Positions 27,691 to 33,860 of a stretch of 33,860 bases of DNA are shown here, one piece after another (within the stretch, counting starts at the first letter, position 1; every line of letters starts with the position of its first letter). The notes under the pieces are model-generated. The model searched no databases. It had not been told where the DNA came from and worked only from the letters and a program-made list of their open reading frames with translations. The DNA is from Mycobacterium sp. (GTDB lineage: Bacteria; Actinomycetota; Actinomycetes; Mycobacteriales; Mycobacteriaceae): positions 1-33,860 of the forward strand of contig JAOPVX010000379.1 in NCBI GenBank assembly GCA_025965975.1. The letters run 5' to 3'. Both the position numbers and the translations under genes were made by a program.

Positions 27691-28371
27691 GCCCCGGAAT
27701 CGTTGCCCCAGGCACCGCCGGTCCCGGGGCGCCGACTTCGGAGCAAAATATCAGGTAAATACGGGATGCGCCGAGACCGGCCGGGCCAGCACACTACACA
27801 GTGAGCGTGGCGGGCTGCCGCGGGCATCGGTAACCGTCATCGGATCAGGATGCGGCCCGCGCCTAGCCCGGCCCCCGACCGCGCCCACCAACAACGACCA
27901 CTCCCACCAACAACACAGAAACCCCGCGGGATGTCGTCTAGATCGCGAGTGGCCCGTACCTCACCGCCGAGGTGGCGATCGCCGGGGGCCGCCGGCACAG
28001 ATCATGGCCGGCGGCCCCTGATGTCGGCGGCCCTGAAATCAGTTGGGACTGGAGCGCTGGCCACGGGGTCTGGGCCGTCCCGGCAGGCAGGGCAAGGTTT
28101 CTCCGGGCATTTGGGGGAGACGCCAGCATTCCGCCCGGATAGACCCGGTGCGGTAACCCAATCTCGACGAGATCATCGCCTGATTCCGTGGCGGCGAATC
28201 AAGTTGCGCTACGACTGAAATCAAAACGGAGTCTCTCAACGGCGATCCCACCCTGCGACGACGGCGCCTCAGAACCGTCAGCAAGTCCCCAGATTGGCCT
28301 TCATGTCCTGCGGGTACGCGGGGATTATCAGAAACTGTCCGGCGGGTAAACGCGCGGTAGAGAGGTCAACC
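27691..28371. other. Gap without a recognisable gene
   Basis: About 680 bases between the LuxR relic and the CtpH operon. Open frames on both strands are low-complexity and do not read as protein. The only candidate signal is the purine-rich AGAGAGG site (28358-28364) before the first operon gene. The operon promoter must lie within the right part of this stretch, but I could not pick a -10 element with confidence. Confidence 0.4.
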
Positions 28372-28827
28372 ATGAACGTCTTCACGGGCGCCGTTCGCGC
28401 CATTACACGGTCGACCGGTGCAAGTGTGGCCGCCGCCGGTGCTCTCAGTGGCGCCGCGATCAACGGTGTCATAGGTGGGGTTCAGGGCGCGGTGGCCGGC
28501 GCACAGCGGGGGCTTGACAGCGGCAGACATTCGACGCCGGCCGCTGCGCTGACGCTGGCCGCGATCGGTGCCACCGGGCTGGTGGAGTGGCCGGTCGTGT
28601 TGCTTGTCGGCGGCACTGCGCTGGCGGTGCGCCAACTCGACGAGCGTGCGCGGCAGGAGTCCGCGTCGAGGCTGTCTGCCGTACCGGACCCGCCAACGAA
28701 AGCGTCGGGACGGGCTGCTCCGGCGCCGAAGAAGGCGGCCAAGACGGCTGCGCGTAAGGCTGCCCCACGCAAGACTGCCCCGCGCAAGACCGCGGCGCGA
28801 CGCCGTTCCGCTGCGGCGAAACGGTAG
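28372..28827 (+). CDS. Small membrane protein with basic tail, Rv0426c-like
   Basis: 151 residues from ATG 28372, after AGAGAGG. Residues 1-60 are Gly/Ala-rich and amphipathic (GALSGAAINGVIGGVQGAVA). Residues 61-86 form a membrane hairpin (AAALTLAAIGATGLVEWPVV, then LLVGGTALAV). The C-terminal 40 residues are a histone H1-like tail with repeated APRKTAPRKTAARRR. Position and length agree with Rv0426c, upstream of ctpH in M. tuberculosis (known order; identity not computed). It lies nine bases before the ATPase gene, so the two are co-transcribed. Its EWPxxLxxGxxxAL stretch also occurs in the protein after ctpH. The function is unknown; it may be an accessory subunit. Confidence 0.75.
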   Translation: MNVFTGAVRAITRSTGASVAAAGALSGAAINGVIGGVQGAVAGAQRGLDSGRHSTPAAALTLAAIGATGLVEWPVVLLVGGTALAVRQLDERARQESASRLSAVPDPPTKASGRAAPAPKKAAKTAARKAAPRKTAPRKTAARRRSAAAKR

Positions 28828-28836
28828 CGCTGCCCG

Positions 28837-31800
28837 GTGAGTCTCGCTGGACTCGTGCGGGATTCCGCAACGCTGCCGTTTCGTGTGGTAAGCACCGGGG
28901 TGCGTGCTGCCGCGATGATGACCGCCGCTGGCGTTGGCCTGGTGGCGAATGCGGGCGGAGCCGACGCCGGTGTGGTCGAGTCGTTGACCGAAGCCGTCTC
29001 GACGGTTCTGGGCGACAAGCCAAGCCGTCGCTGCTGGCGCAATGACGAGCGCTGCTGGATCGAGGTGCGCGGCCTCGCCGATACCGAGACCGGCGATCGC
29101 CTCGGAGTGTTGGTCGTGCAACATGTTCTGGCCCAGCCCGGTGTCTTGTCAGCGACGTTGAACTACCCGTTATCCCGCGTAGTGGTTCGGCTGGACGGCG
29201 ACGCGGCCGCACTACCGAACCTGTGTGATGCGGTGGCAGCCGCCGAGGAGCAAGCGGGCGTCACCGCAGCCCACGGCGCTGTGATCGACCTGCCCGCCGA
29301 CGCGGTAGTAGTTGCCGGGCAATTGGTCGCGACGGCCGCTACTGCCGTCGGGCTGGCAGTGGCTCTGGCCGGGCGGGCGCTGCTGTGGCCGAGGCTTCCC
29401 GGCGCGCTCAACGCTGCGGTCACCCTGGTCGACTACCAGCCGCGCCTGCGCCGAATCGTCGAGGACCGATTCGGCGCCGCCGCCGCCGACGCAGCCCTGG
29501 CACTCGCCGCGGCCGCCGGCTACACCCTCACCCAGGCGCCGGCGTCGCTTGCCGTCGATCTGTTCGTGCAGATCGTCAAGGCTGCCGAGCGGCAGTCGGC
29601 GGCACAGACGTGGACGCAACGGGAACCGGTTTTGGCCGGACACGCCGACTGCGCCGACGGTGTGCGGCCATCGGTGCGTCCACGGCCACGTCCTGCGGGC
29701 CCGGTGGAACGCCATGGCGACCGCAGTGGCATCGCCCAACTAGTCGGCTCGGCCGCGGCGGGCCTGCTCACCGGTGATCTCGCTGCCGCGGCGACCGCCG
29801 TGGTCGTCGCTGCGCCGAAGGCGGCCCGCAATAGTCGCGAAGCGTTTGCCGCGACCCTCGGGCGCGGCCTGGCCGACGATCACGGCGTGCTCACGCTCAG
29901 GCCCGCGGCGTTGCGCAGCCTCGACCGTGTCGACGCGGTCGTGGTTGACCCGCGGGCGCTGTGCGGCGACGACTTGCAGGTGGGGCGGATCCGGGGCGTC
30001 GCCGAGGCCGATCGGGCGGCGGTATGGCGGTGGGCGCAAACCGAATTGATCCGAGGCAGCCTGCCGCCCGGATGGCACTCTGCTGTTGAGGCGGTGGCTA
30101 GCAACGGCAACGCCTGTGCCGGTGAGGTTCTGGTGCGCAACGCTCACCATCCATTGGCCGCGGCGGTGCTGGGGGAGCTGCGGCGCGGCGGGACCGGCGT
30201 GGTGTCGCTTGACGTTGACATCCTCGACGACTTGCGCTCGAGTTTCGACGACCTCGTTGCGTTTGAGGGAGCAGTGGATGATGCGCTTGCCGCTGTGGTG
30301 GGCCGCCTCCAGCAGGAGGGTCACACGGTGGCCGTGATATCGGCGGCCGCAGCACAGGCGCTGGCCGATGCGGATGTGGCGATCGGGATGGCTGGCGGCG
30401 GTGCCGTCCTGTGGCACGCGGACCTGGTGAGCGAAGACCTCGCCGGTGTGTGGCGGGTGCTGCACGCCCTGCCCGCCGCGCGGCAGGCCAGTCGGCGCGG
30501 CGTGGAGATCGCCGCCGGGGCATCGCTGCTCGGCGCGCTGCTGATGATCCCGGGGGTCCGGGGCCGCGGTCCCGGACCGGTCACCGCCGGCGCCGGAGCC
30601 GGCGCCTGGTCCGGCTTCACGCTAGCGCGCGGCGTCTTTAAGTCCAAAACTCCTGCGCCCGTGGTGGTTCAAGAATGGCACGCGATGTCGCCGGAGCAGG
30701 TGCGTCGGCTGCTGCCGACGCCGCCGGCCGCCCACAAGCCCGCGCCGCGGCCGTGGCTGATCGAGACAACCACGACGGCGTCGGGACTCGCGCGGTCGGT
30801 GGTGGAACCCCTGCGACGCTCCATTGGAGATTTTGTCGGTGCGCTGCGCGAGGAGTTGTCTGATCCGCTGACACCCGTGCTCGCTGTCGGCGCCGCGGCC
30901 AGCGCGGTGCTGGGCTCACCGGTGGACGCCGTGTTGGTCGGCTCGGTGCTGGCAGGCAACGCGATGCTGGCCGCCACGCAGCGCATTCGCGCCGAGCGGC
31001 TGCTGCGACGACTCCTCGCCGTACAGGATCCGTTGGCGCGCACGCTAATTGACGGTGCGAATCGCACTGTCGCGAGCGCCGACCTGCGTCTGGGCGATCT
31101 GATCGAAGTTCGGCCGGGGGAAGTGGTGGCTGCCGATGCGCGCCTGATCGAAGCTGTCGACCTGGAGGTCGATGAATCATCGTTGACGGGCGAATCCTTG
31201 CCGGCAACAAAGCAGACCGAAGCGACCCCGGCTGCGGCGGTGGCTGACCGGGCCTGCATGCTGCACGCCACGACGACGGTGGTCTCAGGCAAGGCGGTCG
31301 CCGTCGTGACCGCTGTGGGCGCTCAGACACAGGCGGATCGGGCGGTCCACGCATCGCAGGCCCGCGGCGTGCAAGTCGGGCTGCAAAGCCAGCTACGCGA
31401 TATGACGAACCGGGCCTGGCCGTTGAGTCTGGCGGGCGGAGCGCTGGTCACTGGGCTGGGGTTGTTGCGGCTCACCGGACTTCGGCAGGCGGTCAGCAGC
31501 GGCGTAGCGGTCAGCGTCGCCGCAGTGCCTGAAGGTCTGCCGTTGGTGGCGACGCTGGCGCAGCAGGCTTCGGCGCGGCGGCTGACCCGCACGGGGGCGC
31601 TGGTGCGCACGCCGCGCTCGGTGGAGGCGCTCGGTCGTGTCGACGTGGTGTGCTTCGACAAGACCGGCACACTCAGCGAGAACCGGCTGCGGGTCGCGCG
31701 GGTCGAGGCGGCGACGGGGGGGTCCGACGGTGATGTTCTCCGATACGCCGGTAGTGCGACACCCCCGGCCAACGGTGACCGGCACGAACACGCAACCGAC

Positions 31801-33348
31801 TCCGCTATCGCCGAAGCCGCCCATACCAGCGGTGCGGCGGGCGCCGACGCGGGGGCGGTGCACCTACCGTTCCGGTCCGGTCGGCCGTTTTCCGCCGCCA
31901 TCAGCGGCCGACAGTTGTTTATCAAGGGCGCGCCCGAAGTCGTGCTCGCGGCCTGCCATCGTGCAGGGCCGGGAGTGCAGCGACAGGTCCGCGCGATGGC
32001 CTCGGACGGTCTGCGGGTGATCGCCGTTGCGCACCGACAGCTCTCCGCGCAGCAGGCGGCGGCCGGCCGCGGCGACCCCGACGTGTTCGCCGCGTTGTGT
32101 GGGCAGGGTCTGCGGTTCGCCGGCCTACTCGGCTTGTCCGACACTCCGCGGCCCGACGCGGCGGGGGTCCTGGACGGGTTGGTCGATAGGGGCATCGGGA
32201 TCAGGCTCATCACCGGAGATCATCCCGTCACCGCGACCGCGATCGCCGGCGAACTCGGCATGCCGGTCGCCGCTGACCAGGTGATCAGCGGTCCGGACTG
32301 GGAAGCGCTGTCACGCCGCGCCCAGGAGCAGGCGGTGCAGGATCGGGTCGTGTTCGCGCGGATGTCACCCGAGCACAAGGTGCAGGTCGTCGAAACGCTT
32401 GAGCGATTGGGGCAGGTCTGCGCGATGGTCGGCGACGGGGCCAACGACGCGGCGGCGATCCGGGTGGCGACGGTCGGAATCGGGGTGGCCGCCAGGGGTA
32501 GTGACCCCGCCCGCACCGCCGCCGACATGATGCTGCTCGACGGTCGAATCGCGTCGCTGCTCGACGCGCTTGACGAGGGTCGTCAGCTGTGGAGGCGGGT
32601 ACAGGCGGCGGTGGCGGTGCTGCTCGGCGGCAACGCCGGCGAGGTGGCGTTCGCAATCATTGGCACCGCGCTCACCGGACGGTCGCCGCTGAACACCCGT
32701 CAACTGTTGTTGGTCAACATGTTGACCGACGCACTACCTGCAGCGGCGCTGGCGGTCAGCCGGCCTCACTCGGATCTGCGCTATATCGGCCGCGGTCCGG
32801 ACCGGGCCGCGTTGTGGCGCACGGTCGCAACGCGCGGCACGGTGACGGCCGGGGCAGCAGCTGCGGCATGGGTTTTGGGCAGCATATCCGGCCGCCAGCG
32901 CCGAGCCTCTACCGTCGCGCTGGTGGCGCTGGTCGGCACGCAGCTGGGTCAGACCCTGATCGATTCGCGCAGCCCCCTGGTGGTCAGCACCGCTGTCGGG
33001 TCACTGCTCGCACTCGGCGCAATCATCAGCACGCCCGTGGTGAGCCAACTGCTCGGCAGCACGCCGTTGGGTCCCGTCGGGTGGGCGCAGGCACTGGGAA
33101 CAGCGGCCGTGGCCACCGGTGTCGCCGCAGTAGCGCCGCGGCTGATGTCGCCTGGCGCTCGTAGTGAGCCGGCGGATCCGTCGACGATCTTCACCACGCC
33201 GGCGCGCAGCAACACCGCGTACACCTCACGCAACGGCACCGCCAGCAGCCGGGCGAGGATGTCCGTCAACGGATCTGATCCCACCGAGGTAAAGGCCATG
33301 GTGAACATGGTGCAAGCTCCACAAGTCCAAACCCCCTATCCGACATGA
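28837..33348 (+). CDS. ctpH: P-type cation-transporting ATPase, CtpH/CtpI type
   Basis: 1503 residues from GTG 28837. The C-terminal two thirds hold a P-type ATPase: actuator loop LTGESLP (Thr784-Glu786), the transmembrane PEGLP (898-902), phosphorylation site DKTGTLSENR (Asp941), and hinge GDGANDAAAI (1199-1204), then NMLTDALPAAALA near the end. PEGLP in place of CPx suggests a P2-like pump, not a heavy-metal one. The N-terminal 600 residues contain a heavy-metal-associated-like region (VRGLADTETGDRLGVLVVQH), a degenerate second ATPase-like half (VDAVVVDPRALCGDD) and hydrophobic stretches. Length and gene order match CtpH (1539 residues in M. tuberculosis). The ion is not known. The 3' ATGA overlaps the next gene. 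Confidence 0.88.
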   Translation: MSLAGLVRDSATLPFRVVSTGVRAAAMMTAAGVGLVANAGGADAGVVESLTEAVSTVLGDKPSRRCWRNDERCWIEVRGLADTETGDRLGVLVVQHVLAQPGVLSATLNYPLSRVVVRLDGDAAALPNLCDAVAAAEEQAGVTAAHGAVIDLPADAVVVAGQLVATAATAVGLAVALAGRALLWPRLPGALNAAVTLVDYQPRLRRIVEDRFGAAAADAALALAAAAGYTLTQAPASLAVDLFVQIVKAAERQSAAQTWTQREPVLAGHADCADGVRPSVRPRPRPAGPVERHGDRSGIAQLVGSAAAGLLTGDLAAAATAVVVAAPKAARNSREAFAATLGRGLADDHGVLTLRPAALRSLDRVDAVVVDPRALCGDDLQVGRIRGVAEADRAAVWRWAQTELIRGSLPPGWHSAVEAVASNGNACAGEVLVRNAHHPLAAAVLGELRRGGTGVVSLDVDILDDLRSSFDDLVAFEGAVDDALAAVVGRLQQEGHTVAVISAAAAQALADADVAIGMAGGGAVLWHADLVSEDLAGVWRVLHALPAARQASRRGVEIAAGASLLGALLMIPGVRGRGPGPVTAGAGAGAWSGFTLARGVFKSKTPAPVVVQEWHAMSPEQVRRLLPTPPAAHKPAPRPWLIETTTTASGLARSVVEPLRRSIGDFVGALREELSDPLTPVLAVGAAASAVLGSPVDAVLVGSVLAGNAMLAATQRIRAERLLRRLLAVQDPLARTLIDGANRTVASADLRLGDLIEVRPGEVVAADARLIEAVDLEVDESSLTGESLPATKQTEATPAAAVADRACMLHATTTVVSGKAVAVVTAVGAQTQADRAVHASQARGVQVGLQSQLRDMTNRAWPLSLAGGALVTGLGLLRLTGLRQAVSSGVAVSVAAVPEGLPLVATLAQQASARRLTRTGALVRTPRSVEALGRVDVVCFDKTGTLSENRLRVARVEAATGGSDGDVLRYAGSATPPANGDRHEHATDSAIAEAAHTSGAAGADAGAVHLPFRSGRPFSAAISGRQLFIKGAPEVVLAACHRAGPGVQRQVRAMASDGLRVIAVAHRQLSAQQAAAGRGDPDVFAALCGQGLRFAGLLGLSDTPRPDAAGVLDGLVDRGIGIRLITGDHPVTATAIAGELGMPVAADQVISGPDWEALSRRAQEQAVQDRVVFARMSPEHKVQVVETLERLGQVCAMVGDGANDAAAIRVATVGIGVAARGSDPARTAADMMLLDGRIASLLDALDEGRQLWRRVQAAVAVLLGGNAGEVAFAIIGTALTGRSPLNTRQLLLVNMLTDALPAAALAVSRPHSDLRYIGRGPDRAALWRTVATRGTVTAGAAAAAWVLGSISGRQRRASTVALVALVGTQLGQTLIDSRSPLVVSTAVGSLLALGAIISTPVVSQLLGSTPLGPVGWAQALGTAAVATGVAAVAPRLMSPGARSEPADPSTIFTTPARSNTAYTSRNGTASSRARMSVNGSDPTEVKAMVNMVQAPQVQTPYPT

Positions 33349-33632
33349 CGGGAAAGCGACAAATGGCCAAAAATTCTTCGACCAGCAGTCACCGCAGCGC
33401 CGTCGACCGGGTCCGCGAGGCCGAAAGCTTCGCGGTGGACCTGCCTGTGGTGGGTAGCGTCCGAATACCGCGACCCGAGAGGTTGGCCTACTACGGGGCG
33501 CTGGCCGCACTCGCGGCCGCCGAGATCATCGAGTGGCCGATCGCGCTCGTTCTCGGCGTGGGCCATGCGCTCGCCGAGAATCACCACAGCAAGGTAGCCC
33601 AGGAACTCGGCTCGGCGCTCGAAGAGGCCTGA
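33345..33632 (+). CDS. Small membrane protein, Rv0424c-like
   Basis: 95 residues from ATG 33345, whose ATGA overlaps the ctpH stop; ATG 33363 (MAKNSSTSSH) is an alternative giving 89 residues, closer to the 91 known for Rv0424c. A membrane hairpin reads RLAYYGALAALAAAEIIEWP, then IALVLGVGHALAE, followed by the short acidic tail VAQELGSALEEA. The EIIEWPIALVLGVGHALA stretch parallels GLVEWPVVLLVGGTALAV in the protein before ctpH. Coupled translation suggests a partner of the ATPase. The function is unknown. Confidence 0.78.
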   Translation: MTGKRQMAKNSSTSSHRSAVDRVREAESFAVDLPVVGSVRIPRPERLAYYGALAALAAAEIIEWPIALVLGVGHALAENHHSKVAQELGSALEEA

Positions 33633-33719
33633 GCTCCCGGGGTGCATCGGGAGGACCGAGACACCGTCTCGGCCAGGCTCAGGTAGGGAACGATCGTGGC
33701 GGTGTGCGCCTCGTCCTCG

Positions 33720-33860
33720 ATGAGCAGCGCCGACACCCGATCCACCGCGCTGAGCCAGCACTGCCTGTGCGGGGCGCGGGTGCCCAAGACCCTGGCCCAG
33801 CGCACCCATGACTGCCCGCACTGCGGGCTGCACGCCGACCGTGACATCGTGTCCGCCGCC
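33720..33860 (+). mobile_element. TnpB/OrfB C-terminal zinc-ribbon fragment (runs off window)
   Basis: The frame to the window edge reads ALSQHCLCGARVPKTLAQRT, then HDCPHCGLHADRDIVSAA. This is the CxxC...CxxC zinc ribbon followed by the RuvC-III Asp (ADRD) of TnpB-type proteins from IS607/IS605-family elements, such as the IS1535-like elements of mycobacteria. Homology begins at about 33748; before it the DNA reads better on the minus strand (RVSALLIEDEAHTATIVPYL), so an insertion or deletion junction lies near 33740. The N-terminal RuvC part is absent here and the true end lies outside the window. Confidence 0.75.

What the first reader, a model, noticed from the sequence alone, without database searches (positions are those of the whole stretch)
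28372..33632. P-type ATPase flanked by two small membrane proteins that share an EWPxxLxxGxxxALA hairpin
The proteins before (28372-28827) and after (33345-33632) the ATPase are different in length and tails, one strongly basic and one acidic, yet share GLVEWPVVLLVGGTALAV versus EIIEWPIALVLGVGHALA. Gene spacing is 9 bases and ATGA. This suggests paired subunits that bracket the pump, perhaps with opposite charges docking to each other. I know of no described function for the Rv0426c/Rv0424c pair.
Basis: partly seen in the sequence, partly recalled or inferred. Interest (0 to 1): 0.75.

Follow-up and report, generated by a model that had tools for sequence, protein, structure and literature searches.

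The report
Small partner proteins of double pump
Two small membrane proteins that share a short hairpin sit on either side of an oversized ion pump, and in the actinobacteria sampled proteins with this hairpin occur almost only in genomes that have this uncharacterised kind of pump, so they are probably its dedicated partners.

Summary
Proteins A (28372-28827) and B (33345-33632) share a homologous hairpin around [ED]WP: profile comparison E 1.4e-6. All 64 off-family hits of the B model were A proteins, all 28 of the A model were B proteins; shuffled models never hit the partner family. In 216 sampled Actinomycetes genomes the pump family (FUPA24, CtpH/CtpI-like) was found in 44, the hairpin in 41, both in 38. 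The hairpin gene lies upstream, downstream or divergent, once fused to the pump. "Opposite charges dock" is not supported.

Two further findings. The pump's N-terminal half reads as a degenerate P1B-type pump, without actuator domain or catalytic motifs, fused to an intact Ca2+-ATPase-like half. Antisense to the pump gene's 3' end lies a conserved Rv1535-domain ORF, from a family linked to an Mg2+ riboswitch. Where the pump was deleted (6-9 gain/loss changes on the tree) A and B stay, and this ORF in 16 of 17 loci; those genomes all hold another FUPA24 gene.

Best reading: A and B are scaffold or regulatory subunits of a two-headed divalent-cation pump, able to act in trans. No interaction was tested.

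The parts
28372..28827 (+). A: 151-aa small membrane protein; glycine/alanine-rich segment, EWP hairpin, basic Lys/Ala/Pro tail
   Evidence: no Pfam family
28531..28641 (+). EWP hairpin of A
   Evidence: Profile A6 match E 3.1e-14 (this segment is itself a row of A6); A and B family profiles align here, E 1.4e-6
28837..33348 (+). FUPA24-type (CtpH-like) P-type ATPase, 1503 aa, GTG start
   Evidence: Pfam PF00122, PF00702, PF00689 over their cut-offs, all in the C-terminal half
28837..30876 (+). N-terminal half: degenerate P1B-like pump (HMA-like domain, membrane helices, P-domain with DPR at the place of DKTGT, no room for an actuator domain)
   Evidence: AF2 pLDDT 83.3, pTM 0.83; Foldseek best hit CopA 4bbj E 4e-10; profile hits to copper-pump HMA domains and HMA4; VVVDPR aligned with a P1B DKTGT; motif counts. 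No single sequence passes a Pfam cut-off here
30877..33348 (+). C-terminal half: intact P2-type, Ca2+-ATPase-like pump
   Evidence: TGES, PEG[LM], DKTGT, GDGxND counts; best PDB hits SPCA1, LMCA1, SERCA; TM5-TM6 segment aligns best with Ca2+ pumps
33186..33275 (-). Rv1535-domain small ORF antisense to the 3' end of the pump gene (ORF 32949-33308)
   Evidence: NF040653 51.6 bits, cut-off 33; only match in the genome
33345..33632 (+). B: 95-aa small membrane protein (probable start 33363)
33477..33590 (+). EWP hairpin of B
   Evidence: Profile A6 match E 5.4e-18 (this segment is itself a row of A6)

Best explanation
The locus encodes one divalent-cation pump with dedicated small membrane partners. 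Shown by sequence and models: the large protein is an intact P2-type, Ca2+-ATPase-like pump fused behind a catalytically dead P1B-like fold; A and B carry homologous EWP hairpins; hairpin proteins and this pump family co-occur and are usually neighbours in sampled Actinomycetes. Inferred: the hairpin inserts into the membrane and binds the pump, perhaps its dead half; the glycine-rich helix and the charged tails then cluster, stabilise or regulate the pump, as PacL proteins do for P1B pumps. They can work in trans, which would explain why A and B survive local pump loss. The likely substrate is Ca2+ or another divalent cation.
For: Hairpin homology. Co-occurrence 38/6/3/169 of 216 genomes; all 13 hairpin genera are among the 17 pump genera. 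Neighbourhood in varied order and strand. One natural fusion of a B-type domain to the pump's C-terminus (L142). Two loci with A-pump-A-pump-B (L062, L082). Pump half assignments. A and B under purifying selection after pump loss: dN/dS 0.00-0.11 in four pairs within pump-less clades, 0.08-0.31 in three wider pump-less pairs. All pump-less genomes checked (19 entries, 18 genomes) hold another FUPA24 N-half, in four Nocardia just downstream of B. ctpH mRNA rose 180-fold in a ctpF mutant under Ca2+ stress (PMC9180918, passages seen).
Against: No physical interaction was tested. 6 of 44 pump genomes show no hairpin, among them all three pump genomes of one genus (g82); 14 of 55 hairpin places are not beside a FUPA24 gene and 2 are at contig ends. 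18 of 40 fetched pump loci have no hairpin gene beside them (three cut short by a contig end), including three long mycobacterial pumps that I take for CtpI (L160, L161, L163). The TM6 pattern of Ca2+ pumps was found in only 10 of 40 class-survey pumps, against 55 of 59 near ones, so the substrate may differ across the family. The model of B alone is poor (pLDDT 60.5, pTM 0.27). Profile A6 was partly built from hairpins first seen beside pumps, so its sensitivity leans towards them.
Confidence: 0.6

Rival explanations
1. A and B form their own membrane scaffold or envelope function, and the pump is an optional client gained or lost in the module.
For: 6-9 changes of pump presence on the tree with A and B kept and under purifying selection; hairpin genes with no FUPA24 gene in the fetched 18 kb in several genomes (L174-L184 among others).
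Against: Every pump-less genome examined holds another FUPA24 gene. Only 3 of 41 hairpin genomes had no FUPA24 match; in two of these another P-type ATPase gene lies within a few kb, and the third hairpin is at a contig end.
Confidence: 0.25
2. A and B are metallochaperones that hand ions to the pump, as proposed for PacL1.
For: Position beside a P-type ATPase; B has an invariant His in the hairpin (H74, 53 rows); PacL precedent (PMC9374683 passages, PMC13043812 abstract).
Against: No DUF1490 match; the window's A has no Cys or His in its tail; the active pump half looks Ca2+-type, for which I would expect no chaperone (recalled).
Confidence: 0.08
3. The small proteins are only neighbours, kept together by slow genome rearrangement.
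For: Synteny within Mycobacterium alone could be inherited.
Against: The association recurs with different order and strand in distant genera, with the genes far apart in the same genome (six genomes), and as a fusion.
Confidence: 0.07

Closest known systems
FUPA24 P-type ATPases (TC 3.A.3.24; CtpH, CtpI)
   Same: Twofold length, pump motifs in the C-terminal region (PMC3573892, passages seen)
   Different: That paper calls the N-terminal part an unusually large segment; here it reads as a dead P1B-like pump, and small partners are added
PacL1-3 (DUF1490) with CtpC, CtpG, CtpV
   Same: Small actinobacterial membrane proteins encoded with P-type ATPases, with helix glycines and disordered tails; they gather several pumps (PMC9374683 passages; PMC13043812 abstract and section 14 seen)
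   Different: No match to DUF1490; the partner pump is FUPA24, not P1B; [ED]WP hairpin
Rv1535 domain family (NF040653)
   Same: The antisense ORF passes the curated cut-off
   Different: It lies antisense to a pump gene; the M. tuberculosis Rv1535 locus has an M-box (PMC12810186, passages seen)
KdpF, MgtR, phospholamban-type pump peptides (recalled)
   Same: Small membrane peptides that act on P-type pumps
   Different: Different families; no sequence comparison made

Membership tests
FUPA24 P-type ATPase | About twice usual length with an extra N-terminal half | tested here: met
   1503 aa; the N-half profile has full-length matches in pump genes of other genera
FUPA24 P-type ATPase | Catalytic motifs in the C-terminal half | tested here: met
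   DKTGT and GDGxND each 59 of 59 near and 40 of 40 class-survey pumps
FUPA24 P-type ATPase | Orthology to M. tuberculosis CtpH | not tested
P1B ATPase (N-terminal half) | P1B fold | tested here: met
   Foldseek top hits CopA, ATP7B and a zinc pump, E 4e-10 to 1e-8, but TM-scores only 0.28-0.40; KdpB follows closely, so the class rests also on the HMA match
P1B ATPase (N-terminal half) | DKTGT, TGES, CPC motifs | tested here: not met
   Each 0 of 59 and 0 of 40
PacL / DUF1490 | Match to the Pfam DUF1490 model | tested here: not met
   A: no Pfam family; B: only DUF1972 at E 0.24, below cut-off; none of ten distant hairpin proteins matches DUF1490
PacL / DUF1490 | Clusters and stabilises its pump | not testable with these tools
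   Needs microscopy or co-purification
Rv1535 domain (antisense ORF) | NF040653 over the cut-off of 33 bits | tested here: met
   51.6 bits, 51.1 in the genome scan
Rv1535 family protein (NF040652, full length) | Score over the cut-off of 62 bits | tested here: not met
   42.8 bits: shares the domain, not the whole protein

The most novel reading that the evidence does not exclude
FUPA24 pumps are multi-part machines of a new design: a dead heavy-metal-pump fold covalently joined to a live Ca2+-type pump and served by a new family of EWP-hairpin subunits, and in mycobacteria and nocardiae tied to an antisense Rv1535-domain microprotein from an Mg2+-responsive family.
Probability: 0.4. Interest if true: 0.8.

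Novelty: new variant of a known kind. Interest (0 to 1): 0.66.

Why it matters
A 2023 review (PMC10654040, passages seen) places CtpH and CtpI apart from other P-type ATPases, uncharacterised, perhaps a unique family. PMC3573892 (passages seen) states that the M. [quoted passage not shown] This locus supplies concrete candidate subunits, an explanation for the large N-terminal half, and a link to divalent-cation stress, all testable in harmless actinobacteria.

Tried and rejected
Opposite-charge docking of A and B: rejected as a general rule, because B is only mildly acidic and many genomes show a single hairpin protein. Chance similarity: rejected by shuffled models. Pump remnants between A and B as a small protein in the pump's own frame: several loci have stops there; a frame on the other strand is kept instead. 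Rfam search of 28000-33860: two matches below their gathering scores, taken as chance. The structure of B alone was too uncertain to place the EWP motif. The comparison of the N-half with the pump's own C-half is void, because rows of A5 run into the C-half. Of nine literature searches no listing or passage that I saw describes the hairpin family, a dead P1B half or the antisense ORF at ctpH; only open-licence PubMed Central papers are held and most listed papers were not opened, so this is weak evidence of absence.

Full report
What is there. The window lies in a 7.4 Mb genome; the nearest B proteins in named genomes are from Mycobacterium, Mycolicibacterium and Nocardia. Gene A (28372-28827), the pump gene (28837-33348) and gene B (33345-33632, probably from 33363) run in one direction with short gaps. 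A has no Pfam match and B only one below its cut-off.

Is the shared hairpin real? Yes. A profile of 13 B-type proteins and one of 12 A-type proteins align over 35 columns around EWP with E 1.4e-6 and probability 90. Among 19,099 ORFs from 80 loci, every off-family hit at E up to 1 of either model falls in the other family, 64 of 64 and 28 of 28; 20 column-shuffled models of each hit the partner family 0 times. [ED]WP is in 70 of 71 A and 80 of 80 B proteins.

Arrangement near the window. Of the 80 best B loci (198 found, 80 kept), by my count have A-pump-B, 15 have A-B with the pump gone, 2 have B with pump remnants and no A just upstream (L047, L050), and 13 could not be judged because of contig ends, masked bases or broken or incomplete genes. 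Two of the 50 have A-pump-A-pump-B (L062, L082). In four Nocardia loci a more distant A-type gene precedes a second pump gene downstream of B (L047, L050, L063, L108). This sample was chosen by B, so it says nothing about pumps without B.

Beyond mycobacteria. In 216 Actinomycetes genomes drawn by the tool, the pump's N-terminal half (profile A5, E up to 1e-10) was found in 44 and the hairpin (profile A6, E up to 1e-3) in 41: both 38, pump only 6, hairpin only 3, neither 169. By genus: both 13, pump only 4, hairpin only 0, neither 78 of 95. Fisher p is 2e-32 at genome level, not corrected for kinship. Limits: A6 was partly built from hairpins first seen beside pumps, which favours such cases, and only the 5 best candidates per genome were scored. 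I fetched 40 of the 52 pump loci that I count. With models built before this survey, mostly from mycobacteria, 21 of the 40 have a hairpin protein beside or in the pump gene at E 1e-3 or better; a hairpin model that includes these scores them at 42.9-74.5 bits, L168 (hairpin broken by a stop) at 16.5, and the other 18 at 11.3 or less or not at all. Three of the 18 are cut short by a contig end (L140, L143, L164). By my reading of the 55 hairpin places, 39 are beside or inside a FUPA24 gene, 2 are at contig ends and 14 are elsewhere (two of the 39 by coordinates only). Order varies: upstream (L145-L149, L165-L167, L170-L173), downstream (L131, L156, L158), divergent (L125, L126, L128, L150) and fused to the pump's C-terminus with a basic tail (L142). 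In six genomes hairpin and pump are both present but not neighbours (G124, G177, G197, G125, G055, G095).

What the pump is. The C-terminal half is intact: DKTGT, PEG[LM] and GDGxND in 59 of 59 near and 40 of 40 class-survey pumps, TGES in 57 of 59 and 40 of 40. Its best solved relatives are Ca2+ pumps (SPCA1, LMCA1, SERCA); the TM5-TM6 segment aligns best with Ca2+ pumps. The GNxGE pattern of TM5 is in 58 of 59 and 38 of 40, but the TM6 pattern in 55 of 59 and only 10 of 40. The N-terminal half has DKTGT, TGES, GDGxND and CPC in 0 of 59 and 0 of 40; CxxC occurs in 1 of 59 and 1 of 40, PEG[LM] in 1 of 40. Its AlphaFold2 model is good (mean pLDDT 83.3, pTM 0.83). Foldseek finds CopA first (4bbj, E 4e-10, 652 columns), then ATP7B, a zinc P1B pump and KdpB; TM-scores are about 0.3-0.4, so domains are shifted. 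A sequence profile independently hits copper-pump HMA domains (4e-5) and the phosphorylation domain of HMA4 (3.9e-4) in the expected order, with an unrelated sugar-binding protein at 0.006. Taken singly, the sequences give no Pfam hit over a cut-off in this half (HMA in 7 of 25 members, best E 0.019; one member whose piece reaches the C-half is set aside). A profile alignment puts VVVDPR on the DKTGT of a P1B pump of this genome (E 1.9e-6). Between helices 235-267 and 289-312 there is no room for an actuator domain (my reading). So I read this half as a dead P1B-like pump. [quoted passage not shown]

Pump loss and the antisense ORF. On a tree of A plus B from 66 loci, the 15 pump-less loci need 9 changes of state, at least 6 forced by well-supported branches; a change may be a loss or a regain (quick tree without bootstraps). 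All 16 pump-less loci tested keep a match to the end of the pump before B (best E per locus 4e-5 to 2e-39, six frames), which speaks for loss. In four pairs within pump-less clades dN/dS of A and B is 0.00-0.11, in three wider pump-less pairs 0.08-0.31, in seven pump-bearing pairs 0.04-0.37. The genomes of the pump-less loci, 19 entries of which two are the same genome, all hold another FUPA24 N-half; in four Nocardia it is the one just downstream of B. The retained stretch has stops in the pump's frame in several loci. On the other strand it keeps a frame with the pattern of PLRELYAVLWR-x-GVVEI, found in 67 of 79 loci examined, in 16 of 17 pump-less ones (not L063), and inside the pump gene in 43 of 43 loci with a whole pump gene and the pattern; 32 of 67 stop 19 codons after the pattern begins, 36 have an ATG 21-22 codons before it, 7 both, 6 neither. 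In four pairs within pump-less clades pooled pN/pS is 0.42 in that frame, 0.49 in plus frame 1 and 1.15-1.73 in the other four; plus frame 1 does about as well, so this test alone is not decisive. NCBIfam is clearer: the window ORF scores 51.6 bits against a cut-off of 33 for the Rv1535 domain, the only match in the genome. In the 216 genomes the domain occurs in 10, all of the window's family. In each of the 10 one copy lies within 300 bases of the B hairpin on the other strand, on the pump side in 9 (including pump-less G215 and, below the cut-off, the fused G175) and beyond B in G241; one further copy lies just beyond another pump gene of G241 and 8 lie elsewhere. In M. tuberculosis Rv1535 is tied to an Mg2+-sensing M-box (PMC12810186, passages seen); CtpH does not occur in that text.

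How it may work. The evidence supports functional partnership of hairpin proteins and pump. How they touch is inference: I favour a membrane scaffold or regulator, as with PacL proteins, whose helix glycines are needed for clustering (PMC13043812, section 14 read). The substrate, Ca2+ or a similar ion, rests on the C-half of near relatives and on one expression report (PMC9180918, passages seen).

Noticed in passing
window 32949-33308 (-), domain 33186-33275: Rv1535-domain small ORF antisense to the 3' end of the pump gene, conserved in relatives and kept in 16 of 17 pump-less loci.
   Followed up: partly
window 28837-30876: N-terminal half of the pump reads as a dead P1B-like pump without actuator domain.
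   Followed up: yes
L142 2797-8148: Pump with a B-type hairpin domain and a long Lys/Ala tail fused at its C-terminus.
   Followed up: partly
L168 8072-9142: Hairpin gene beside a pump interrupted by a stop at the tryptophan codon.
   Followed up: no
L185 and L186: Hairpin genes within a few kb of a different P-type ATPase gene in genomes without a detected FUPA24 gene.
   Followed up: no
L172 8116-8904: Hairpin protein whose basic tail weakly resembles histone H1-like HC2 (E 1.5e-4, below cut-off).
   Followed up: no
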